Made by a program: the position numbers and the translations under genes. Below, piece by piece: positions 2,632 to 19,081 of a DNA stretch of 20,411 nt. Location of the stretch: positions 1-20,411 of the IMG/VR virus record IMGVR_UViG_3300033146_001192; one strand, 5' to 3'. The notes under the pieces are model-generated. The model worked only from the letters and a program-made list of their open reading frames with translations, had not been told where the DNA came from and made no database searches. Source of the DNA: a virus. Every line of letters begins with the position of its first letter. Position 1 is the first letter of the stretch.

Positions 2632-3756
2632 CTACTTTTGAAACAACCTTTGTTCGAAAAGTTTTTCAAAAATTTCCTTTCCTTTGTCTATTGGCGAGTC
2701 TTTGTAGTCAAGTAGTTCTTCTTTGTCAAATATAATTGAAACGGAATAATTTTTACCGATTCTTTCAACCATTGAAGTTAAGTTCTTAGTCTGCTTTAAA
2801 AACTCATTGTCCCCTCTTTCTTTCCATTGCTTGTCTAGTGCGATCACTATTTCATTTACCTCTGGAGTAAATACTTTTATTATTTCTAGCTGAACCATAG
2901 ATAGGGAACTTCCACATATTGCAACTGAAATATTATTTTCAAACCCAAAAAGGCTGTCATATAGCAGTACCGATTTCTCAGATTCAAAGATAATTATTTT
3001 TTTCATTGTTCTTATATTGTGAATAGTTTTATTTAAACCGTATAGATTTTGACCTATTGCATGGTTATACATTACACCACCAAGAATGAGAGGACCATAC
3101 TTCCCGTATCTTTCAATCTCTTCTTCAACTAGCGCCCTAAACCTAATTCCCACTAAATCGCCAGTGTGCGAGTAATGAGGTATAACTATTTTATGCTGAG
3201 TCCCATGATATTTTATACCGTACTCCTGCATAGTCGGCACTGTAATACCCTCGTTTAACCAAGGGGCTGGAGCCGCAAAAGAAAGATTATCTAATTCACT
3301 TTCAGAAATTGATTTAAGTCCGAGTGGAATCTTCTTCTTCAACTTTATAATCTTTGAATAGAATTGAATTAATTCTATATGATCTCTAATAGCAGACCCT
3401 CCATTTCGGGTGTTGTCTTCCATTAGAAGAGTTGGATCCAAATCAAGAAAATCAATTACTTTTGCTATTGCATATTGAAGAGTTACCTCTTCATCGTTCG
3501 TAATGAGTTCAACTTTCATTATTAGCTCAAAGATATCGAATAATCCTTCACATTCTGTGTAACATTTAAATAAACTTGAATCTGTGTAATAGTAAAGCTT
3601 CTTTCCATTTGACCGACCTGGTAAGTGATGGCAGATAGTTTCCATTTGAAGACCTTCTGGAATGCGTATTGGATTAGCTCCGTAACTTTTAACGATTCCG
3701 ATTATTTGCTCGATCTTAATTGACTCTCAAATGTCTTTTATTTTATATCTAGCCAT
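2632..3756 (-). CDS. DnaG-like phage primase (CHC2-like zinc finger plus TOPRIM), with in-frame TGA at codon 10
   Basis: The zinc-finger region begins around ICHH and continues through KLYYY to KCYTEC, then FDIFELIMKV, as in phage CHC2 primases. A TOPRIM-like segment follows: IIIFESEKS, then IVIALDKQW, and LLDYKDSPID near the end. It would make RNA primers for the DnaB-type helicase just upstream. The ATG at 3756 has AGGAG 8 nt away and is 11 nt after the helicase stop. Codons 1-9 read MARYKIKDI, codon 10 is TGA (3727-3729), and the same frame continues ESIKIEQIIGIVKSYGANP into the zinc finger. The first downstream in-frame ATG (3645, METICHH) would drop a segment that looks like normal primase N-terminus. 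It has AGAAGG 7 nt upstream and so remains a possible start. Stop is TAG. Confidence 0.82.
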
Positions 3757-3767
3757 CTTTTTTTCTC

Positions 3768-4046
3768 CTAGTCCTCCTCTACTACTATATTAAAATTATC
3801 AAGAGGAATTAATTTATAGTTATTGTCTGTTGCAAATATAGGATTGACTCTACATGTCCCAAGGTCCTCGACACACCAAAGCTTAACTGATTTAAATCTA
3901 CCACGTCTATTCTTGAAAACATGATGAACTAAAGTTGGTGTCGGCATAGCATTGGTTGAGGTTAGAGACTCAAGATTTTTCAAGTCTGTTTCAGTTACAG
4001 GAAGCACGATTGTACCAAAGTCAATCTTATCTGCAATGGCCTTCGC
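3768..4046 (-). CDS. dnaB: dnaB-type replicative helicase, exon 3 (C-terminal end)
   Basis: This exon encodes 92 residues beginning AKAIADKIDFG, the segment that follows RG in phage DnaB-family helicases, then IVLPVTETD and a C-terminal tail. It ends at TAG (3768-3770), 11 nt before the primase ATG. The frame is open further upstream, to an ATG at 4166, but that part lies in group I intron sequence and is not protein. The junction ACACG|GCGAAG is set by protein homology, by the G ending the intron, and by a short P10 (GCG with CGU). It joins exon 2 (ending AGAGGT) in phase 0 to give RGAKAIADK. The exon supplies the end of the RecA-like ATPase core. Confidence 0.85.
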   Translation of the reverse strand, partial: AKAIADKIDFGTIVLPVTETDLKNLESLTSTNAMPTPTLVHHVFKNRRGRFKSVKLWCVEDLGTCRVNPIFATDNNYKLIPLDNFNIVVEED

Positions 4047-4422
4047 CGTGTTATTCTTATGTTTCCACAAGCACTGACTATATCTTAACAAAACACTTTG
4101 ATGTGTCTTGCTATATCTGTTTCGATTTTCACATACTTCGTTTCCTAAAATATGACTACGTATCAATAGTAGCTCTACTCCCCAGCATTACAACCTAAGG
4201 GATAGTCGATAGCCCGCTTTAATTAGTTATTTACCCTTGTAGAAAGTAGGCTCATTTACCATTTTAATTTTATGAGCCATGTTTAACTAATTAACATGGG
4301 ACGGGATTGTCATGTCACTTGATAGTGATTTAGATTTCCCCGTAAGCATCAGCGTTATTTTTTTTATGTCGCTAACACCCCTGCTGATAAGCAGGTTAAA
4401 ATATATTAAGGCACGTGTTTCT
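4047..4422 (-). ncRNA. Group I intron 2 of the helicase gene (no ORF, about 376 nt)
   Basis: Core elements in order on the minus strand: P-like CUUACGGGG near 4340, Q-like CAAUCCCGU near 4310, R-like AUCGACUA near 4210, and S-like AAGAUAUAGUC near 4080. R and S pair as P7 (GACUA with UAGUC). P1 is exon GAGGU with guide GCCUU, giving the required U.G pair at the 5' splice site. P10 is the weak GCG/CGU. A CUUGUG-GAAA-CAUAAG hairpin precedes the 3' end, which is G. No homing endonuclease is present, so it is a minimal or ORF-lost intron. It fills this gene-free stretch completely. Confidence 0.82.
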
Positions 4423-4476
4423 ACCTCTAAGCAAGTTCTGATTCCCGTCTTGTTTTGTCTCCCAGTCCATGGGATT
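4423..4476 (-). CDS. dnaB: dnaB-type helicase, exon 2 (54-nt mini-exon)
   Basis: Eighteen codons encode NPMDWETKQDGNQNLLRG. The NQNLLRG part is the DnaB-family segment just before AKAIADK, found at the start of exon 3. The 3' boundary (AGAGGT) is well supported by P1 of intron 2. The 5' boundary is less certain. I put it after GUGGG, the right arm of a CCCAU/GUGGG hairpin that would be P9 of intron 1, because an in-frame TAG occurs four codons earlier. About 30 to 35 residues expected between exon 1 and this exon, including the helicase Q motif (H4), are not encoded nearby. Confidence 0.72.
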
Positions 4477-5451
4477 CCCACATTTCTATGGGCACTGACT
4501 ATCTCTTACTTAGTAATATCACTAAGTACATCCGTTTCGGTTCTCAGCAGCTTCATTTCTTATAACTGCGACACGTACTAATTAGTGTCCCTACGAGCCT
4601 ATTAAGCCTCTAGTCGATACATGCTTCAAATCCACATTTTTTTACGCTTCTTATAAATCGGCAAGTGTTTATAAGAGCTTCCTTCTAATATGTGTTTTAC
4701 TGATGATGCTCCAATTATATCTTTAAAGATAGTCTGAATCTCCGGAATGGTTTTAGTTAAGTACATTGATCTCATCAAGAGAGCTTCTTCGTCAGATATT
4801 CTAGACATTCCATTCTTAGAACCTGGTCTAGCAAGAGCTTTTCTTCTAAGAGGATAATCAACGGATTGTATTCTCCATGCCTGCCCAGTGTTTATTAAAC
4901 TAATGGTGGCAACTGAAACATCAAACCTCTTGGCTATAACCTCAAAGTTCATTGAAGTGTCTTTTAAATCATGCACTATTACAGGAATATCAGATTCACA
5001 TAACTTGGATTGAGAATGATTTTCTCTTGAGAGGTTTGGACCTTTTCCACCGTTTGAAGTGTTATATCCATTTGAAACTGTGTCATATTTAATAATCCAA
5101 TATATCTCTCTTTCGTTCCTTAAATCATCGTCTTCAATTAACTCTAAAACCTCTAAGCTAAAATTCTCGATTGAGTATTTTCTAAAAGCCCTGTTCTTCT
5201 TTGATTCGTAGTCAGAAACATTCTTATTTAAGTGAGAGGTTCTATGTTCAGACCATCTTCTCTCAATATCGTTGCTTTGACCTATGTACTTTTTATTGTT
5301 TTCTCTATTGGTTATCATGTAAATTCCTTTTATGATAATCACCTACTATTTTTATTTTGCCTGTTTCTGTGTCTTTGATTCACACGGGATTGCCTTCAAC
5401 TCTACTTGGTAAGGTTCCCCCGTTAGCTAGACTGTTTATCTAACCCCTACT
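4477..5451 (-). ncRNA. Group I intron 1 of the helicase gene, td-like, carrying a GIY-YIG endonuclease
   Basis: P-like GCUAACGGGGGAACC (5413-5427) and Q-like GCAAUCCCGUG (5383-5393) lie before the endonuclease ORF. R-like AUCGACUAGAGG (about 4607-4618) and S-like AAGAGAUAGUC (about 4498-4508) lie after it. P7 pairs GACUA with UAGUC, and P3 may pair AGUCU with AGGCU. The ORF is therefore in the P6 region, where T4 td carries I-TevI. The 5' splice site is placed after GACU (P1 GACU with GGUU) and the 3' site after GUGGG. Both are softer than in the other three introns, and no good P10 joins them, so the 5' and 3' halves may come from two different introns. Confidence 0.72.
4626..5342 (-). CDS. 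GIY-YIG homing endonuclease (in helicase intron 1)
   Basis: A 238-residue protein with GIY at residues 6-8, YIG at 19-21, Arg28/Arg29 and a conserved NEREIYWI...NGYNTSNGGKG segment, all typical of the GIY-YIG nuclease domain in the first 100 residues. The C-terminal half has helix-turn-helix-like stretches (VIAKRFDVSVATISLI; ISDEEALLMRSMYL) and a SKNGM segment like NUMOD3, consistent with DNA-binding modules of I-TevI-type enzymes. It would cut intronless alleles of the helicase gene to drive homing. The start is GTG (reads MIIIKGIYM), without a strong Shine-Dalgarno, and the stop is TGA. It lies wholly between the Q and R elements of its intron. Confidence 0.88.
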   Translation of the reverse strand: MIIIKGIYMITNRENNKKYIGQSNDIERRWSEHRTSHLNKNVSDYESKKNRAFRKYSIENFSLEVLELIEDDDLRNEREIYWIIKYDTVSNGYNTSNGGKGPNLSRENHSQSKLCESDIPVIVHDLKDTSMNFEVIAKRFDVSVATISLINTGQAWRIQSVDYPLRRKALARPGSKNGMSRISDEEALLMRSMYLTKTIPEIQTIFKDIIGASSVKHILEGSSYKHLPIYKKRKKMWI

Positions 5452-7647
5452 AGTCTTATCTTCTCTTAGTTTCACTCCACCGCTCCTTTTAGTTATTTCT
5501 TCTAAAATCTTTAAAGAGGTGTGAATATAATCCATGAAGACATATTTAACTCCGCTATCTATTACATGTTTTTTAATGGTGTTTTCTATATCAGAGAGAG
5601 AAAAATCTGGGAGCTCTTCCAAGTAAAGTGGACTATCAATCATCATTTGACCAGCCTTAAGGACTCGGTCCTCTTCGTCTCCAACATAATTACCATCTAG
5701 TATCTTCTCTTCATTTACACCGGAAAGAAAAGCCAGTATCATAGTCTGAAGCTCTTCAACTTCCTGTTCAGTAGATATGAATAAAGCAGGCTCTTTCGTT
5801 CCATTCTTAACCCACTGCCCTGTATTTAAATCATAAAGCTCATCCATTGCGATGTATGATGAATCCGCAATTGACATTCTTGTATTATGCGTAACTATGC
5901 CCCCTTGCAAAAGAAAGAGTTCAGTTGGATTGGTGGTACTTATACAGGTCATTTCCTTTTGAGCTTCTGTCTTTTCAATCTCAAGAATACTGACATAAGA
6001 GTTTCTTGAAGGTTGTGACCATTTTTCGTTAATCCTTTCAGAGTCGTGAAGAACTTCTAAGTACTCGTTAGTTCTTATGGTTAAGTCATAGTAACCGTCA
6101 AATTTATAGTCCTTTGTTCCATTGGGCTGGATATGACCTTTCTTTGACTCTGCTATCCTACATATGACTCCGAGTGAGTCACACACTTCTTTTATATCGT
6201 TCGCAAAAGTAACTGATGATGTGGTGTATCTGTAACCATTCTTCTCTGAGGTTAAACCGCCTTTCGCATCAATAATTCCTTTTACTAGCTCCCATCTATC
6301 CCTGGGTGAGCTATATTTGTAAATGTCTGGGATGAAACGCTCTGTAGAGTGATTTTTAATTAAATCTAATTCTCTTATGATATTTAAGAACTGAGAGGTT
6401 CTTTCTCTTTTTATCTGTCTTATATTGAAAAACATTCTATCTGGAGTTTCCTTGTAGTCTATTTTAGATAAAGTAGCATTAACTAAAGCTAAATCAGCTA
6501 TTACTTTTTCTAGTAGCTCTTCATCATATATACTTAAATAAGTATGAAAGCCATCTTTTCTAAAGACCGCATCAGAAAGTATGACACCCATCGTATGAGG
6601 TTTAACTGGAACTGCTTTTCTTGAATATCTAAGAGGCCTAATCGATGGAAGTCTTAACTTTCCAGTTAAACCTGTTGTTCCATTTCTAATATTCTCTGTT
6701 TTTAAGATTGTTTTAGTGTCTGCGGTTTTCAGCACGTCTGGCTTACTGATTTTAGAATAAGTCCAAAGATGCTCTTCGCAACACTCAATAGTAATGCTAT
6801 TTGAGAATCTAACCTTACAAACGTCTTTCAGTCCTTGCGGGAAGGTGCCTTTAACTCGATACACTTTACCGTCTTCGCCAAATATTGGATCTCCTATAGC
6901 CAAGTCCTCTATTTTCGTAGGCCCACTCGGCGTCATAACTAAAGTGCCATTTGCAAGTGCTTTTCCAAGACCGGTGGCCGCAGATCTTAGATAAAATTTC
7001 TTTAATCTCGCACCTCTTGTAACTGTGTTAATCAAGTTTCCATAAAGTGGTAGCCCAACCTCCGGAGTGTCTTTCATTCTTTGAATCAGTTCAAAAATAT
7101 TATCTCCAGCTTGAGCCCCCTTGGTCGAAACGGTTTCAAGGTATTTACTTTTGATGTCGTTTATTTTATCGTCTATTGCATCTGCAATATCCATTATATC
7201 TGTTGAATCTAACCAATCTTCTTGAAGCTGTTTCTTTGAAACATTCAAAAGAGATGGATCATATAGCCAAGATACGTCTAAGCCGTGATTGTTATACATT
7301 CTTAATAGAGTCATTTTCTTCATTCTGTTATAGTAGTAGTCGAAGTTAGAAATGTCTGACGACTCTATTATTTCAGAAAGATACTCAGGACCCTTCTCTT
7401 TGTTGAATTTTTCGTATATGCCAGGTCTACTTGATAAGTAGTTGTCAATATCTAGCAAACCAATATTTTTTACCCCTTGTTGCTTTAAGTTGTTTACTGC
7501 TCCGTATATGTATAAGTAGAAACTAGAACCAAAGTCTTCTGCATTAAAGGTGTACTTATCAGTTCTTAGTAAGATTGTACTATGTGTAATTAGTCCTGCT
7601 AGTACCTGTGAGATACTTTTTTGGTCTAGTAATTGATTACTATTCAT
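5452..7647 (-). CDS. dnaB: dnaB-type replicative helicase, exon 1 (N-terminal domain, Walker A interrupted by an intein, Walker B)
   Basis: The exon encodes 732 residues, of which 230-588 are an intein. The mature part has an N-terminal alpha-helical domain, then the RecA-like core: Walker A ATGLGK|T split by the intein, FISTEQEVEELQTMILAF (motif H1a region) and KYVFMDYIH (Walker B, H3). The reading frame leaves protein-like sequence after KLREDKT and hits a stop four codons later, inside intron 1. The product should be the hexameric fork helicase working with the primase downstream. The ATG at 7647 overlaps the end of the zinc-finger gene by 8 nt, so translation is probably coupled. Splicing to exons 2 and 3 leaves the H4 segment missing. 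Confidence 0.88.
5884..6960 (-). mobile_element. Class 3-type intein in the helicase Walker A motif (359 aa, degenerate LAGLIDADG)
   Basis: The intein runs from Ala230 of the precursor (ALANGTLVM) to Asn588 (VTHN), followed by Thr+1. It begins with Ala rather than Cys or Ser. The diagnostic class 3 triplet is present: Trp66 in block B (EEHLW), Cys339 in block F (MTCIS) and Thr357 in block G (VTHN), numbered within the intein. Two LAGLIDADG-like motifs sit at about 122-131 (MGVILSDA) and 225-234 (KGIIDAKG). The second has Lys where the catalytic acid should be, so cutting activity is doubtful. Removal joins GLGK to TRMSIAD and rebuilds the P-loop. Confidence 0.9.
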
Positions 7648-8231: not shown

Positions 8232-9200
8232 CTATGTTTCAATGCCTTCCATTGCTTCGGCCTCTGCTTTCAACTCGGCTAAAGTAACTTCATATTTGGC
8301 GAGGTCTTCATCAGACACGGGGAAAGCCTCTAGCTCACTAGCAATAATTTCGACAATCATTGCTTGATCAATAGTACAATCTGAAACCTTTTTACCGATT
8401 CCCAACTGTTTGTTAATCACGTGAACGATTCGAGGTCCGTAGTATGGAGTATTGATTAATAGTAGTTTATCAGAAATCTTTTTAAACTTCAACATAACAG
8501 TGTCAAAATCAATTTCAACCGCAGCCATGTGAACATTCTCTCTTTCATCGCTAACGTACTTATTATCAGACTCAAGAGCCTCTTTATCAATCGCACGTCC
8601 AAGAGCACCAACTAAGTTGTCGTAACTAAGAATGATTTTCTCTTCGATATACTTGAATCTAGAACCCGCTTCAAATCTAGGTGTTCCTCTTAAGAACATA
8701 TACACTTGATGACCCTCAGCAGTGTCAACGCCTCTAATATAACCAATAATATCAGTCATTCTTGAAACTATTAACTTAGCTTTGTTTGGAAGAGTTGGAA
8801 TGATTTTATTATACTCAAGACCAGCCTCATCTGTAAAGGTTCTATCTATTTCATGACTTATCATAACGATACCATAGTTCATTTGAACTATTTGTCTTAA
8901 TCTAGTGTCGAACTCTTTAGCCACTTTAGAATAACCTTGACCATAAGGAACCTCACCGATTGTATTTACACCCTCGATACCACAAACGTATTGTTCGCAG
9001 TAGTCATAAAGAATGTCAGCAGTGTCTAAAACGATTGTTTCAAATTTTTCCTGAACTTCAGTTTCTTTTAATTCTCTTAGAACCATTAAGAAATCTGACC
9101 ATCTATTGATAGGTTGAACGAAGATGCCGGGTAGTGCTGAGTACCCTTTCTCTGCGGCTAATAATAGAGAATTTGGAAAGCGTGTTGCTATAGTAGTCTT
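8232..9200 (-). CDS. Sak4-like RecA-fold ATPase (ssDNA annealing/recombination), exon 2
   Basis: This exon encodes 322 residues beginning KTTIATRF, the second half of a Walker A motif whose first half (YGPPKIG) is in exon 1. Walker B is TIVLDTADIL. MISHEIDRTF is the sensor-like region typical of phage Sak4/AAA_24 proteins. The spliced product has 351 residues, longer than minimal Sak4 owing to a C-terminal alpha-helical and acidic extension. Sak4 proteins are RecA-like single-strand annealing recombinases, often encoded beside an SSB, as here. The apparent ATG at 9203 is a chance codon made by the last intron bases (ATG|AAG) and is not a real start. Stop is TAG. Confidence 0.85.
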   Translation of the reverse strand, partial: KTTIATRFPNSLLLAAEKGYSALPGIFVQPINRWSDFLMVLRELKETEVQEKFETIVLDTADILYDYCEQYVCGIEGVNTIGEVPYGQGYSKVAKEFDTRLRQIVQMNYGIVMISHEIDRTFTDEAGLEYNKIIPTLPNKAKLIVSRMTDIIGYIRGVDTAEGHQVYMFLRGTPRFEAGSRFKYIEEKIILSYDNLVGALGRAIDKEALESDNKYVSDERENVHMAAVEIDFDTVMLKFKKISDKLLLINTPYYGPRIVHVINKQLGIGKKVSDCTIDQAMIVEIIASELEAFPVSDEDLAKYEVTLAELKAEAEAMEGIET

Positions 9201-10163
9201 CATATTTAGACTATATCTTAAAATGCATTAAAGAGCTGTTTTTGAAAGAACAAATCCTTTTAGTTTTCTTTTATTATTAACGTACCTGGACACAGAAGCA
9301 ATACCAATCTGAAGGTCTTTTGCACACTCTTTTTGACTTGAGTAGGATTTTATAAAAATACCTTCATCATCATAAAGAAATACTTCTTTCCTGTTGAGGT
9401 TAAACCATTCAGGTATCCTGCTTTTTTGATATGACTTAAACTGGAATGATCCGTAGTGCATCACTTCCTCTTTAACACATCTTAGTATCGTGCTATAGTC
9501 CATCTTGAGCTCTTGAGCGGCCGACTTTGAGTTTTCGAATCTTCTTACGAACTCTCCTTTTAAAGTGTATTGGAAACATTCTCGCATCTCGTTTTTTTGA
9601 AGTCCCGATAGATAACTATGTCGCATATTTTCAAGAGCGGTAGACCACTCCAAATTAGACAATTCGTTATTTAACTTATTCCCATCTTTATGGTTGACTT
9701 GTAGGTCATTCATCTCTGGGTTCGGATCAAAAGCTTTCAACACGAGTCTGTGAACTGAACAGTTCTTGTTGACCCTGGCTCTTAGATGAACCATGTGATA
9801 CCCATTACCAGACACAGATCCTCCTAAAAGGGTTTTTGAACTGTCGTTTCTCACAGCTCCCAAACTTGATACACTATAAAACGTCTCTAATTCGTTAATA
9901 ATAATTTTTTTCCATTGTTCTTTCATTTTTCTCTCCTATACACCTACGGGCGTTTCGATTATAAAATCTACGGTTATAAAACCTAGTCGTTGAACGTGTT
10001 CCCCTTTGGGGAGTTCGCTGCGGATTACTTAATATCTTTGACTTTTTACTATCTCTACCGTGATTAGCAGTAGCCACTAGTGCATTACTACACTACCTTA
10101 GTACCAAAGTGTTTAAAAGCTTTCCCGCAATTAACCCATATAATTTAGGCAAAACTACAATTT
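9201..10163 (-). ncRNA. Group I intron in the sak4-like gene (963 nt), carrying an HNH endonuclease
   Basis: P AAUUGCGGGAAAGC, Q AAUCCGCAGCGAAC and R GUUCAACGACUAGG lie upstream of the endonuclease ORF, and S AAGAUAUAGUCU lies after it, 20 nt from the 3' splice site. P7 pairs GACUA with UAGUC. P1 is exon UAGGU with guide GCCUA, five pairs with U.G at the splice site. P10 is exon 2 AAGACU with AGUUUU next to the guide, six pairs. The intron ends in G. The splice joins PPKIG to KTTIA. The ORF lies between R and S, in the P8 region. Confidence 0.93.
9228..9926 (-). CDS. HNH homing endonuclease with NUMOD modules (in the sak4 intron)
   Basis: A 232-residue protein. The N-terminus (EQWKKIIINELETFYSVSSLG) matches the NUMOD4 module. 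The HNH_3 core is around residues 59-94, with SVHRLV, NHKDGNKLNN and LSNLEW. Two NUMOD1-like DNA-recognition repeats follow, near 110-150 (QYTLKGEFVRRFENSKSAAQ) and 190-225 (VFLYDDEGIFIKSYSSQKEC). This is the I-HmuI/SPO1-like architecture of phage intron endonucleases, which nick or cut the intronless target and favour spread of their intron. AGGAG lies 6 to 7 nt before the ATG. The frame is intact, so the enzyme may be active. Confidence 0.92.
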   Translation of the reverse strand: MKEQWKKIIINELETFYSVSSLGAVRNDSSKTLLGGSVSGNGYHMVHLRARVNKNCSVHRLVLKAFDPNPEMNDLQVNHKDGNKLNNELSNLEWSTALENMRHSYLSGLQKNEMRECFQYTLKGEFVRRFENSKSAAQELKMDYSTILRCVKEEVMHYGSFQFKSYQKSRIPEWFNLNRKEVFLYDDEGIFIKSYSSQKECAKDLQIGIASVSRYVNNKRKLKGFVLSKTAL

Positions 10164-10250
10164 ACCTATCTTAGGTGGTCCGTACAACAGTACGGAATAC
10201 CCTCTAAGGTCTCTGCTTACAATATGTGGTGTTAAATCCATTAATCCCAT
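10164..10250 (-). CDS. Sak4-like RecA-fold ATPase, exon 1
   Basis: This 87-nt exon encodes 29 residues ending VLLYGPPKIG, the first half of Walker A. ATG at 10250 is preceded by a perfect AGGAGG 8 nt upstream, just after the stop of the ssDNA-binding protein gene, so the genes are co-transcribed. Without splicing, translation runs three codons into the intron and ends (GKL, then TAG). Joining to exon 2 in phase 0 gives GPPKIGKTT, a complete P-loop. The exon is easy to miss because of its size. Its identity rests on the AGGAGG, the P-loop and the ribozyme pairings. Confidence 0.92.
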
Positions 10251-13485: not shown

Positions 13486-16400
13486 TTACTTCCCCTCTAT
13501 ATTTATAATGTTATCTATTGAGTTAGTTTTAATGAGTGAGTTTCCACCAGCCGCTCTTCCAACTAGAGGAATCTCTTTATTCATAATTAGTTTCGCTTTT
13601 CTATCAAAATATACTAGGATAGAAGGATTTTGTGAGGACGATATATATGAAAGTTCTTCATTCTCTTTTGAACACTTATGCCCAACAACACCGATTCCAC
13701 CTCTACCTTGAACAGGGTAGTCTTTTATAGCTGTCTTTTTCATGTTGCCCAAATTAGAGATAGTTACAACCGTTTCATTTAAGTTATTAACGCTAGAAAT
13801 ACAAGTAGCTTTGTTTGAATCTTTTAGTTTAATTCCAATTACTCCAGTTGCTACTCTTCCTATGCAAGTAACTTTATCTGAGCTAAAGTGAATTGTCATA
13901 CCGTTAGAAGTACCAATAATTAAATTGCCTTCCGTAATAGTAGTTACTCCAACAACCTTGTCATTGTCTGTGAGTTTTATCCCTATGGTACCATTTCTTT
14001 TTATTGAAGTATAATTAGTTAACAAGCTTTTTTTAACGATACCTTTTTTAGTAAGCATTATAAGATACATATTCGGATCTTTAGGGTCTATAACACTTAT
14101 TATTTTAGTGCCTTCCGCAGATAGTAACATTCCATTTGTAATGTCAACAGCATGGAACCTATAAACCTTACCATCTTCTGCAATAGCTGAAACGTAGTCT
14201 TTGTTAGAAATATAGTTACTATACACAAAGGCTCTAGACTCTAGCTTCGTAAATGGCTTCTGTGAAACTCTAACTTTAAAAGCTCCATCAACTGCAATGT
14301 AGTTGAATATTTCAGCAGCTCGCTCTTTTTCAGTTCTAGGTACTATAATATTATCTATTACAGTTCTTCTTGCGTCTCCAAACTTAGACTTAATTTCATT
14401 GAGTTTTAAGATAATTTTGCTTTCTAAGTAGTCACTATCTGAAAGCGTTCTTTCTAAGTCGGCTCTTTCGGCTTCTTTATCTCTCTTTTCGTTCTCTAAG
14501 TCAAGAGTTTCTAGTTTTGTTAATCTAGTTAATTTAATATCCAAAATAGCTTTCGCCTGATCTTCATTTAGACCAAACTCTTTAACTAAAGACTCTTTTG
14601 CTTCTTTTGGACTGTTACTACCTCTAACTATTTTAATTACTTTGTCGATACTATTAATTGCTATGATTAATCCTTCAAGAATATTAATTCTCTTTGCGAT
14701 TCTTTTGAGTATGTAGTTGCTCTTTCTAGCTAGTATTTCCTTTTGAAAATTAAAGTACTCTTCAACCAAATTCTTAAGCGAAAGAGTTTTTGGCTCTCCT
14801 TTTACTAGACAAGTGAAGTTCAAACTAACAGTTGACTCCAAAGCTGTTTTAGCAAAAAGAAGTCTAAGAACGTCTTCAACTTCAGCGTTCTGATCAACTT
14901 CGACTATCAGTCTAATGTCCTTGCCACTCTCGTCATAAACATCTGAAACACCAACTATATCCTTGTTCTTACACAACTCAACAATTTTCATCGTTAGAGC
15001 ATCTTTTTTAACCGCAAAAGGAATCTCCGTAAACACAATTAGTTTTCTCTTTTTATTTCTTGGTTTGTCTTCAATGTGATAGATTCCTCTAACTCTGACT
15101 CTGCCACGACCTGTTTGATAACCTGAAAGTAACTCGTCTCTATTAATAACCAAGCCACCTGTTGCGAAGTCAGGCCCTTTTAAAGTTTTAAGCATTTCCG
15201 CAACAGTAATATCTTTATTCTTTGAGTATTCAACTATTGTATCAATAGTATCTGTTAAATTATGTTGAGGAAATGATGTTGCCATACCCACTGCGATACC
15301 AGTGCTTCCATTAACAAGTAAGTTAGGAAACAGAGCTGGTAGTACAACTGGCTCTAATTCATCATCAGAGAAGTTAAGTTTAAAATCTACAACGTCTTTG
15401 TCCATGTCTTGCAACATTTCCATTGAGAGTTTGCTTAGCTTCGCTTCTGTGTTGTGATTAATAAAACCATTCGCAACGAAAGAATGACAATCAGAATCAA
15501 CTTTTATAGAGTACACCACTTCTTCGTCTGGCAAGACCTCAAGAGAAACGACCTCCACATCTAAGTAGTTGTTTAGTAGGTTTAAAATCACTCTCTCTTC
15601 TTCTGCGGTAGCAATACCTTTGATCTTTGAGCAGTTTTTTAAGTTGGCGAAAGAGGTTTTACGAGCATACGAAGAGGGGTACTTCTTTCTAATAAAATTA
15701 GATATCTTTGGTATGTTGTAATAAGAGTTATTGGCAATCTTTTTTTTCTTTTCTTTGTTTAAGACGCTGGCTTTTAAAGACGCATTTTTTCTATCGCTTA
15801 GGAATCCAATCTGATCCATGAACTTGGCAACTCCATATGAAGAGATTGATAACTTATACTCAAGATTTGATTTCGAAACAGCGCTAAATATTCCAAAGTT
15901 TTGTATTAACAGTATTTGAAGTTGATTAACTAGCTTTTCGCTGTACGATGAATATTGAATCCCTATACCACCAACGTACCCGTCGCCTTCAAATAGGTAT
16001 TTAATAAAGTTTTTTTGATACTCTTTAGTTCCCTTCAAGACCTGCTTTGGAACTACTTTATCTCTAGCCTTGTCTTTGTAATCGTATTTTTCAATAAAAG
16101 ACTTAAAATATTCTTTATCTGCAATACAGTACTCATAGACACTCTCTCTTTTTACAATATTTGCAAGAGAGGAAGAGTCTCTTCTAAAAAGGTCTTGAAC
16201 CGGCTCAACCATATCTATGTCTGTATTGTTAATACCAATCCTGTTTTGAGTTGTAATGTACCCCTCTGAAACTAAGCAGCCAAGAGCCCTAGCTTCAAGA
16301 ATGTCGTTATGTTGACCAAAGACAGAGTTAGTCTCATTGGTTGGCACTAAGATTCGATCTCCTGTCTTAAAGTCAGATATTATCTTCCACTCAAACTCTA

Positions 16401-16998
16401 AATCTTTGTTTAAAACTAGTAGAGGATGATTGTAACTCCCCCTTATTGACATACCATTTTTCGCACTTAACTTATAGATAGTATGATAGCCGCTATTAAA
16501 CAGTTTTTTAGATGAGTTGTTTCCTTCAATACTTTTAATGCTAATCTTGTCAATAACGTTGTCTGAATTTAGTTCAGTGCTTGCCAACTCTTTTATTGGT
16601 AAAGTACCTTGGTCCGTTGCGATTAAGGCGTCTCCTGTTACGCAGTATCGCATAGCCGCAGGTGGATCTCCGTCAATAGTTCCCATGTTACCATGTCCAT
16701 CAACTAAAGGGTATCTCAAGGAAAACGGTTGAGCCATCCTAACCATTGCATCGTAGATAGAAGTGTCACCATGCGCATGATATTTACCCATTGTGTCACC
16801 AACGATACGAGCTGATTTCTTATGAGGTTTACTTGGTATAAGACCAAGTTTATGCTGTGCGAATAAAATTCTTCTATGAACTGGTTTATTACCATCTCTA
16901 ACGTCTGGCAGCGATCGATCAGTGATAACCGACATTGAATAATTTATAAACGAATCTTCTACTTCCTTAATTATCTCACTATTGAATACTTGCTCCAT
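13486..16998 (-). CDS. gyrA: Type IIA topoisomerase subunit A (GyrA/ParC-like) precursor with intein
   Basis: A 1170-residue precursor; removing intein residues 119-516 leaves 772 residues, in the usual GyrA/ParC range. The N-terminus has [17 protein letters not shown] and KYHAHGD, then AAMRY with catalytic Tyr118, which forms the covalent bond to cleaved DNA. A coiled-coil segment ([20 protein letters not shown]) and a C-terminal beta-pinwheel follow. The motif VQGRGGIG near residue 1096 resembles a GyrA box, favouring gyrase-like over ParC-like activity, but this is not certain. It would pair with the gyrB-type subunit two genes upstream. ATG is immediately after the RNase H stop, with its GGAGG inside the RNase H gene, indicating translational coupling. 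Confidence 0.93.
15451..16644 (-). mobile_element. Class 1 intein with LAGLIDADG endonuclease at the GyrA active-site tyrosine (398 aa)
   Basis: The intein starts with Cys (CVTGDALIA) right after catalytic Tyr118 and ends GFINHN before Thr+1 of TEAKLS. Block B is SYNHPLL, and the LAGLIDADG motifs are [11 protein letters not shown] and [12 protein letters not shown], both with acidic residues kept. Ligation restores AAMRYTEAKLS. The insertion point and flanking blocks (NSDN, LFNSG, NHPLL, GFINHN) resemble the mycobacterial GyrA inteins, such as M. xenopi, which use the same site. All splicing residues (Cys1, block B His, penultimate His, Asn398, Thr+1) are present, so it should splice. Confidence 0.96.
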
Positions 16999-17520: not shown

Positions 17521-17925
17521 CTAAACTGTAACTTTTGCCTTCAATGCGTTTTGCTCTATAAAAGCTTTTCTATGCTGAACACTTTTGCTCCCCATTAAAT
17601 GAACGAACATTTCTGCGGTAGCCTCTTCATCGTCCATTAGTATCCTTTTGATACGTCTCTTGTCAACGTCCATAGTCGTTTCTTTTAGTTGCTCTGGATC
17701 TAACTCCCCAAGACCTTTCATGTATCCAACTTCTAATTTACTAGTTGGGTATTTAGCTTTAAAATCAGATAGTTCTTTGTCATCTAGTAAGTAATATGAT
17801 TTCTTGTTTTTAACAACTCGATAAAGTGGAGACATAGCAACATAAACGTGACCAAGTGATATTAGCTCTTTCATATATTTGAATAAGAACGTAAGGATTA
17901 AATATTTGATATGAGCTCCGTCAAC
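17521..17925 (-). CDS. gyrB: Type IIA topoisomerase subunit B (GyrB/ParE-like), exon 2
   Basis: This exon encodes 134 residues starting VDGAHIKYLILTFLF, the continuation of the TOPRIM metal-binding motif TDADVDG begun in exon 1. It goes on through YMKELISLGHVYVAMSPLY and MKGLGELDPEQL and ends RKAFIEQNALKAKVTV, the normal C-terminus of GyrB/ParE proteins. The open frame only shows an ATG at 17874, but the preceding VDGAHI codons are clearly coding and place the exon start at 17925. Stop is TAG, 15 nt before RNase H. Confidence 0.93.
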   Translation of the reverse strand, partial: VDGAHIKYLILTFLFKYMKELISLGHVYVAMSPLYRVVKNKKSYYLLDDKELSDFKAKYPTSKLEVGYMKGLGELDPEQLKETTMDVDKRRIKRILMDDEEATAEMFVHLMGSKSVQHRKAFIEQNALKAKVTV

Positions 17926-19081
17926 CTTACATACCCTAGCTTTCGCTATACTTATTATAAACTATTTTATATTTTTCGAACTTCCTGTCCAAGAAAACTG
18001 TTGCATCTTTGTAAATTTTATCCAATTGATTCGCAGCCGCTAATGTTCCACCTATCTTGAAACTGTATATGCTTTTATCAGATAAAACGTTAGCTTTAGA
18101 AGTTTCAAAGAATTCTTTTATTTTAAGCAAGAATTCTTCTCTACCTGAAAAACCAAAAACAAAGCTTTTTTTAGAAACAGAAATGTACCCGTCGCCATCA
18201 AAATACCCTCTTATAAAATGTCTAACTAGGCTCTTCTCTATGACTGGGAAGTCTAGCTTAAAGGTTTTTTGTTCAACAACGCCATGTCTCTTTAGATCAT
18301 TGACAGTTGTCTGGCTCGTCATTAGTATTCTACTGAAGTAACCGTCTTTATTGTATCCACTTCCTTTGTACTCAAGGATTGGATTCGTTGATTTAATATC
18401 GCTCTTGAATTTAGCTAAATGGTCACTATCTTTTGATGACAAAGTAATCCCAAACTTTTGCGCTCCATGAGGTCTTTTAGATTCAACGAACCCATCTGCG
18501 TAGAAAAAACCAAGCCAATACGCCTTTTTTTCACTATCAATGTTTTTAAAATAATCAAAGTCATGTGAATACATTCGGCTCGTTTCGCTTGTGTTTCTAA
18601 TTGGAACGCCATTCTCAACCAAAATTCTAGATAACGTTTTCCTCGAGTGGTTCAACTCTTTTGAGATTACTCGTATAGAATTTCCATTTTTATATAACGA
18701 TATTAGTTCGGACAGTTCTTTTTCTTGTAGTACTAATTTTTTAGGCATTATTGTTCTCCTTTTCGTTGGGTTATTGTTTCCGTCAACGTAAATGAAAAAC
18801 GAATAAAATAGTTTAAAGGGAATAGACCATATTATCACCTAATTTCTTAGGGCTGTGTATTTCGGACCAGTTTTCATTGGTCCTACTCTCATGCCTGAGA
18901 TGGTCGTTGAACGTTACTCTTTTAAAAGAGTCTTCGCTGCTGATTGCCCAATCTCTATAATTTTCAAACATTCACGCTTGTCGTTTCCGACTACGTTGTA
19001 GTTTATAGAGCTCTAAGGGGTTTCCAGCAATTAACACAGTGCTTCAATAGAGATCACTCTCTAAGGGGACGTTGTAAGTTC
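17926..19081 (-). ncRNA. Group I intron in gyrB TOPRIM domain (1156 nt), carrying a LAGLIDADG endonuclease
   Basis: P AAUUGCUGGAAACC, Q AAUCAGCAGCGAAG, R GUUCAACGACCA (about 18900-18914) and S-like ACUGGUCCGAAAU (about 18860-18872) are present; P7 pairs GACCA with UGGUC. P1 pairs exon GGAU with GUCC, with U.G at the splice site. P10 pairs exon 2 GUUG with the CAAC directly before that guide. The intron ends in G. Splicing joins MTDAD to VDGAHI. The endonuclease ORF lies after S, in the P9 region, and stops 10 nt before the 3' splice site. The 333-nt stretch 18749-19081 is ribozyme core. Confidence 0.94.
17936..18748 (-). CDS. LAGLIDADG homing endonuclease with N-terminal helix-turn-helix (in the gyrB intron)
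   Basis: I choose ATG at 18748 (MPKKLVLQE), which has AAGGAG 7 to 8 nt upstream. The frame is open further, to 18838, but that part overlaps the intron core and lacks a ribosome binding site. The 270-residue protein has a helix-turn-helix-like N-terminus (SIRVISKELNHSRKTLSRIL) and two LAGLIDADG motifs, AYWLGFFYADG near 76-86 and IRGYFDGDGYI near 179-189, both with acidic residues, so a monomeric active enzyme is likely. Its target would be the intronless TOPRIM sequence of related topoisomerase genes. Stop is TAG. Confidence 0.92.
   Translation of the reverse strand: MPKKLVLQEKELSELISLYKNGNSIRVISKELNHSRKTLSRILVENGVPIRNTSETSRMYSHDFDYFKNIDSEKKAYWLGFFYADGFVESKRPHGAQKFGITLSSKDSDHLAKFKSDIKSTNPILEYKGSGYNKDGYFSRILMTSQTTVNDLKRHGVVEQKTFKLDFPVIEKSLVRHFIRGYFDGDGYISVSKKSFVFGFSGREEFLLKIKEFFETSKANVLSDKSIYSFKIGGTLAAANQLDKIYKDATVFLDRKFEKYKIVYNKYSES

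What the first reader, a model, noticed from the sequence alone, without database searches (positions are those of the whole stretch)
3768..7647. Spliced helicase lacks the segment that should contain motif H4
Exon 1 ends in coding-like sequence KLREDKT and exon 2 resumes at NPMDWETKQDGNQNLLRG. In the DnaB family about 30 to 35 residues (an LK.LA helix, a beta strand and the conserved TQ/SQ of motif H4) lie between. I read all minus-strand frames of 4477-5451 and found no such exon. The 5' half of intron 1 also lacks a good P10 with its 3' half, and its core resembles that of intron 2. Options: a missing exon lost by recombination or assembly collapse between two similar introns, an exon elsewhere joined by trans-splicing, or a truly shortened helicase.
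Basis: partly seen in the sequence, partly recalled or inferred. Interest (0 to 1): 0.8.

Follow-up and report, generated by a model that had tools for sequence, protein, structure and literature searches.

The report
Deletion across a helicase exon–intron boundary
A phage replication-helicase gene really does lack a stretch of about 28 residues that all 133 comparable relatives have, but the cause is ordinary: a deletion of roughly 120 bases that removed the end of one exon together with the start of the mobile intron behind it, leaving a broken gene copy or an assembly error rather than a new kind of splicing.

Summary
The gap is real. All 133 homologous helicase loci with enough downstream sequence encode the segment between LRED and DW...NQNLLRG; the window does not, in any of six frames. 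The missing motif is H3 (helix, strand and conserved Gln), not H4; H4 (NLLRGAKAIADKIDFG) is present. There are not two fused introns. Several distinct relatives carry one group I intron at the matching site (TQLNG|DW) with a related GIY-YIG ORF, a conserved IGS, P2 and P2.1. In the window everything from P2.1 onward is kept, and P6 covaries between the two halves, so both belong to one intron. The last ~28 codons of exon 1, the 5' splice site, P1/IGS and the 5' strand of P2 are missing as one block: LRED to the end of P2 is 10 nt against 127-132 nt, so about 117-122 nt are gone. Any product lacks H3: the allele is null as written (inference). An in-frame TGA at codon 10 of the neighbouring primase fits a defective genome or a poor consensus. 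Mutation or assembly artefact: needs raw reads. Trans-splicing and a functional short helicase are not supported.

The parts
5456..7647 (-). Helicase exon 1 (DnaB-like; contains an in-frame intein), truncated: ends ...KLRED-AA, lacking the last ~28 codons including motif H3
   Evidence: tblastn/alignment with 133 homologous loci; coordinates
5884..6960 (-). Intein inserted after the Walker A GLGK (starts ALANGTLV, ends VTHN, +1 Thr)
   Evidence: weak Hint_2 match, ORF, intein-less homologues resume at TRMSIAD; coordinates
5455..5456 (-). Deletion junction (position +/- a few nt): exon-1 sequence GAAGATAA joined to the P2 3' strand GACTAGTAGG; about 117-122 nt missing
   Evidence: LRED-to-GGGG distance 127-132 nt in 9 loci versus 10 nt here
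4468..5455 (-). Remainder of group I intron 1: P2 3' strand, P2.1, P3-P9 and ORF; lacks 5' splice site, IGS/P1 and P2 5' strand
   Evidence: alignment with L041 and other introns at the same site, P2 survey, folding
5426..5444 (-). P2.1 hairpin GTTAGATAAACAGTCTAGC, first intact intron element after the junction
   Evidence: strand folding; coordinates
4626..5342 (-). GIY-YIG homing endonuclease ORF inside intron 1, intact (238 aa)
   Evidence: Pfam PF01541 E=1.5e-12; PHROG 7168 E=4.9e-32; 41% identity to L041 intron ORF
4423..4467 (-). Helicase exon 2 DWETKQDGNQNLLRG (start of motif H4 region)
   Evidence: homologue alignment; coordinates
4047..4422 (-). Group I intron 2 (376 nt, no ORF), complete with P1 and P2, at LLRG|AKA
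   Evidence: P2/P2.1 found; same site occupied in L002, L015, L031
3768..4046 (-). Helicase exon 3 AKAIADKIDFG... to stop
   Evidence: tblastn; coordinates
3727..3729 (-). In-frame TGA at codon 10 of the downstream primase gene (ATG at 3756), at a position where homologues mostly have Arg or Lys

Best explanation
Shown from sequence: the phage helicase gene carries one ordinary GIY-YIG group I intron at the TQLNG|DW site, as several relatives do, and compared with them a single block of about 117-122 nt is missing: the last ~28 codons of exon 1 (motif H3) together with the intron's 5' splice site, internal guide sequence/P1 and the 5' strand of P2. Inferred: without P1 the intron cannot select its 5' splice site. 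Unspliced translation ends after LREDKTSRG, and even a lucky in-frame splice (LREDKT-DWETK) gives a helicase without H3, so the allele is null. The GIY-YIG ORF is intact and could still be made. Cause, less certain: a real deletion in a defective phage genome (about 0.6) or an assembly or chimeric-read artefact in a metagenome contig (about 0.35). The second lesion in the next gene, a primase stop codon, fits either. The confidence below is for one intron plus one deletion block, whatever its cause.
For: 133/133 homologues have the segment and the window has none. Introns at the same site in L041, L168, L174, L175, L184, L186, L208 and L241 have the exon end AAT(GGT/AGT/GCT), an IGS-P2 stretch TTGCCAATAA..CTTATCC or close, and where compared an ORF related to the window's. 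LRED-to-P2-end distance is 127-132 nt against 10 nt. P2 is found in 42 of 44 distinct introns of this family but not in window intron 1; window intron 2 has it. RNA folding gives P1+P2+P2.1 in L186 and L174 but only P2.1 in the window. P6 5'/3' strands covary, GTGTG with CATGT (L041, L175, L208, window) and GTGCG with CGTGT (L168, L174, L186), so the two halves belong to one intron (strand sequences printed; pairing read by eye). The primase TGA sits at a conserved Arg/Lys position.
Against: No near-identical undeleted relative was available (closest helicases ~66% identical over 142 aa), so the exact deleted sequence and both endpoints are inferred. Real deletion and artefact cannot be told apart without reads. 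The reading frame would stay open across a fortuitous splice, a 1-in-3 coincidence.
Confidence: 0.87

Rival explanations
1. Assembly artefact (a sub-case of the best explanation as to cause): the phage is intact, and the contig joins exon 1 to the intron across a 120-nt gap through a chimeric read or a gap-closing step.
For: Metagenome-derived virus record; two lesions in adjacent essential-type genes while the other genes compared look intact.
Against: A repeat-driven collapse needs a k-mer shared by both ends. The left flank matches exon 1 only up to GATAA and the right flank is intron, so any overlap is only a few bases. No Ns at the join.
Confidence: 0.35
2. Trans-splicing: the missing exon piece with P1 and the P2 5' strand lies elsewhere in the genome and joins in trans.
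For: Only 20 kb of the genome is known, so an exon elsewhere cannot be excluded.
Against: Exon 1 runs straight into P2-3'/P2.1 with no intron 5' end after LREDK; nothing like the segment in the window; all relatives found with this intron are contiguous in cis; a literature search showed no phage precedent in titles and abstracts.
Confidence: 0.03
3. Two different introns recombined (5' half of one, 3' half of another), losing an exon between them.
For: Introns 1 and 2 share a core type; no P1/P10 for intron 1.
Against: P6 strands of intron 1 match each other and differ from intron 2 (sequence); one full-length ORF spans the supposed breakpoint and matches single introns at this site end to end; the 3' site is the same as in single-intron relatives.
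Confidence: 0.04
4. A functional shortened helicase: the intron now splices at a new 5' site (KT| or KTS|), giving an H3-less but working enzyme.
For: An in-frame product is possible; a 4-bp TAGT/GCTA pairing like P1 of L041 exists.
Against: The pairing overlaps P2.1, which scores and folds better; P2 is absent; H3 is present in 133/133 relatives.
Confidence: 0.03

Closest known systems
GIY-YIG-encoding group I introns at the TQLNG|DW site of the DnaB-like phage helicase
   Same: Same insertion site, 3' end, P2.1, P4-P7 core; GIY-YIG ORF 37-41% identical where measured
   Different: Window copy lacks the 5' splice site, P1/IGS and P2 5' strand, and ~28 codons of the upstream exon; the hairpin after the P7 5' strand differs in sequence
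T4 td / I-TevI type phage group I introns
   Same: GIY-YIG ORF looped out of the core, phage DNA-metabolism gene as host (own knowledge)
   Different: Different gene and site; membership not modelled here
DnaB-like helicases of gut Clostridia phages and MAG contigs, of Enterococcus phages VRE9/EF1 and of SPbeta (YorI)
   Same: About 50-66% (metagenomic) and 44-49% (isolates) identical over the ATPase core
   Different: The metagenomic relatives all encode motif H3; the window does not

Membership tests
Phage group I intron with GIY-YIG ORF (site TQLNG|DW) | P3-P9 core with P7 (ATCGACTA/TAGTCAG) and matching P6 | tested here: met
Phage group I intron with GIY-YIG ORF (site TQLNG|DW) | GIY-YIG endonuclease ORF | tested here: met
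   Pfam PF01541 1.5e-12
Phage group I intron with GIY-YIG ORF (site TQLNG|DW) | 5' splice site with IGS/P1 and P2 | tested here: not met
   absent, deleted; hence an inactivated derivative, not a working member
Phage group I intron with GIY-YIG ORF (site TQLNG|DW) | Rfam group I intron model match | tested here: not met
   no match at gathering score for any intron of the window, intron 2 included; not decisive, since the apparently complete intron 2 is missed as well
DnaB-like replicative helicase | Walker A, Walker B, H4 region | tested here: met
   PHROG 19 E=1.9e-29 and Pfam DnaB_C 1.3e-7; homologue alignment
DnaB-like replicative helicase | Motif H3 (helix, strand, Gln) | tested here: not met
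Trans-spliced group I intron | Missing exon and intron 5' part present elsewhere in the genome | not testable with these tools
   not in the 20.4-kb record; rest of genome not held

The most novel reading that the evidence does not exclude
The helicase mRNA is completed by an exon that lies elsewhere in the phage genome, joined through an intron split between P1 and P2 (a trans-spliced phage group I intron).
Probability: 0.03. Interest if true: 0.85.

Novelty: new member of a known kind. Interest (0 to 1): 0.2.

Why it matters
It removes an apparent case of a helicase without a core motif, or of trans-splicing, and shows how an intron 5' end and its exon can be lost together. More usefully, the comparison shows that this phage helicase gene has about four group I intron sites and an intein site within its ATPase core, a good system for studying crowding of mobile elements. 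It also warns that consensus metagenome contigs can carry null alleles of replication genes.

Tried and rejected
Hidden exon in the window: six-frame profile search, nothing. Two-intron fusion: rejected through single-intron relatives, P6 covariation and the whole ORF. Natural short form: 0 of 133 relatives. New P1 at KT| or KTS|: only a 4-bp pairing that competes with P2.1. Recoded TGA in the primase: it is the only in-frame TGA in the genes examined, and TGA ends two other genes, so not a general reassignment. Near-identical second copy: no match to a 25-mer of the intron in viral contigs; the window ORF alone as query found no relative. Literature searches gave no parallel. The first P6 pair count used a wrong register and was replaced by reading the printed strands. 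A covariance model was not built because alignments and the P2 survey already decided the point.

Full report
Setting. The window is a 20.4-kb virus record with no further sequence held. The genes discussed are on the minus strand. The helicase (7647 to 3768) contains an intein after Walker A and two group I introns. Profile searches call it DnaB-like (PHROG 19, E=1.9e-29; Pfam DnaB_C, 1.3e-7).

Is the segment missing? Yes. In close relatives the sequence between LRED and D(Y/W)...QNLLRG reads N(I/V)LFMISxRLKDLCNQYGVFIMSATQLN(A/G/S), an 87-nt gap between the two aligned parts in nearly all uninterrupted genes. Across viral and bacterial-genome contigs, 133 of 133 helicase loci with at least 150 nt after LRED encode it (some of these are overlapping or near-identical contigs). 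A profile built from 28 distinct copies finds nothing in six frames of the window. In T7 gp4 nomenclature helix alphaF belongs to motif H3 and the DNA-binding motif H4 is residues 493-504 (PMC9198812), so the missing part is H3; the window still has the H4 region (NLLRGAKAIADKIDFG). Transfer of the T7 names to this family is my inference from the order of the elements.

What is intron 1? One intron, not two. L041 has a group I intron at TQLNS|DY whose ORF is 41% identical to the window's over its whole length and whose 3' half aligns with the window through P7 and the 3' splice site. Pattern searches gave more introns at the same site: L168, L174 (same as L194, L202), L175 (same as L234), L184, L186, L208, L241. 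They share exon end AAT-GGT/AGT/GCT, an IGS written TTGCCAATAA or close, CTTATCC, a P2 hairpin, a P2.1 hairpin ending in GC, then TAACGGGG. In the window the order after LRED is GATAA-GACTAGTAGG-G-GTTAGATAAACAGTCTAGC-TAACGGGGG: the P2 3' strand and P2.1 follow the exon directly. The distance from the GAT of LRED to the GGGG at the end of P2 is 127-132 nt in nine loci and 10 nt in the window, so about 117-122 nt are gone.

Structure. Folding of the 5' region gives P1, P2 and P2.1 in L186 and L174 (z -3.6 and -2.8) and only P2.1 as a stable element in the window (z -1.0). In a survey of 44 distinct introns of this family, P2 followed by P2.1 was found in 42, window intron 2 included; window intron 1 is one of the two without (this is a simple stem search, so some of the 42 are probably chance stems). 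The 5' strand of P6 is GTGTG where the 3' strand is CATGT (L041, L175, L208, window) and GTGCG where it is CGTGT (L168, L174, L186); the strand sequences are printed. The script's own pair count there was off by one register and printed 0, so the pairing was read by eye. This ties the two halves of window intron 1 together and argues against a hybrid of two introns.

Consequence. Without IGS/P1 the intron has no 5' splice-site selection (established group I mechanism). Unspliced reading gives ...KLREDKTSRG-stop. A hypothetical splice after KT or KTS would stay in frame, but P1-like pairing there is only 4 bp and overlaps P2.1, and the product would still lack H3. So the helicase allele is null as written (inference).

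Mutation or artefact? A repeat collapse in an assembly graph needs a long shared word at both ends; the flanks share at most a few bases, so this is unlikely. A chimeric read or gap closure remains possible. The next gene, the primase, has an in-frame TGA at codon 10 at a position where homologues mostly have Arg or Lys, while other genes compared (RecJ-like, Sak4-like, gyrase subunits, SSB-like) show no such missing segment. Two lesions within about 2 kb fit a defective genome or a weak consensus about equally well. Only raw reads can decide.

Verdict. Interest is low. The chance of something categorically new (trans-splicing) is about 3%.

Noticed in passing
window 3727-3756, minus strand: Primase gene has a purine-rich ribosome-binding-like site and ATG at 3756 but an in-frame TGA at codon 10; homology to primases runs through it.
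   Followed up: partly
L002, L015, L020, L031, L041, L051, L073, L171, L183, L241, L264-L266 and window 3768-7647: The helicase ATPase core holds group I introns at about four sites (after Walker B, TQLNG|DW, LLRG|AKA, AIAD|) plus an intein at Walker A: a mobile-element hot spot.
   Followed up: partly
L041, L051, L249, L252, L264: Relatives show in-frame TAG at Gln positions (probable TAG=Q recoding), whereas the window uses TAG as a normal stop.
   Followed up: no
window 5884-6960: Helicase intein starts with Ala (ALANGTLV) and its endonuclease motifs look degenerate (ILSDAVF, IIDAKGG): possibly an Ala1 intein with a dead endonuclease.
   Followed up: no
window 9200-10170 and 17875-19060; 13486-16998: Sak4-like ATPase gene interrupted at Walker A by an intron with an HNH ORF; gyrB by one with a LAGLIDADG ORF; gyrA appears to carry an intein. 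Exons of the two interrupted genes join without gaps relative to homologues.
   Followed up: partly
window 4047-4422 and 4468-5455: Rfam group I intron models do not detect these introns at gathering score.
   Followed up: no
window 4595-4618: After the P7 5' strand the window intron has GAGGC..GCTC where relatives at this site have TCCCC..GGGGA.
   Followed up: no
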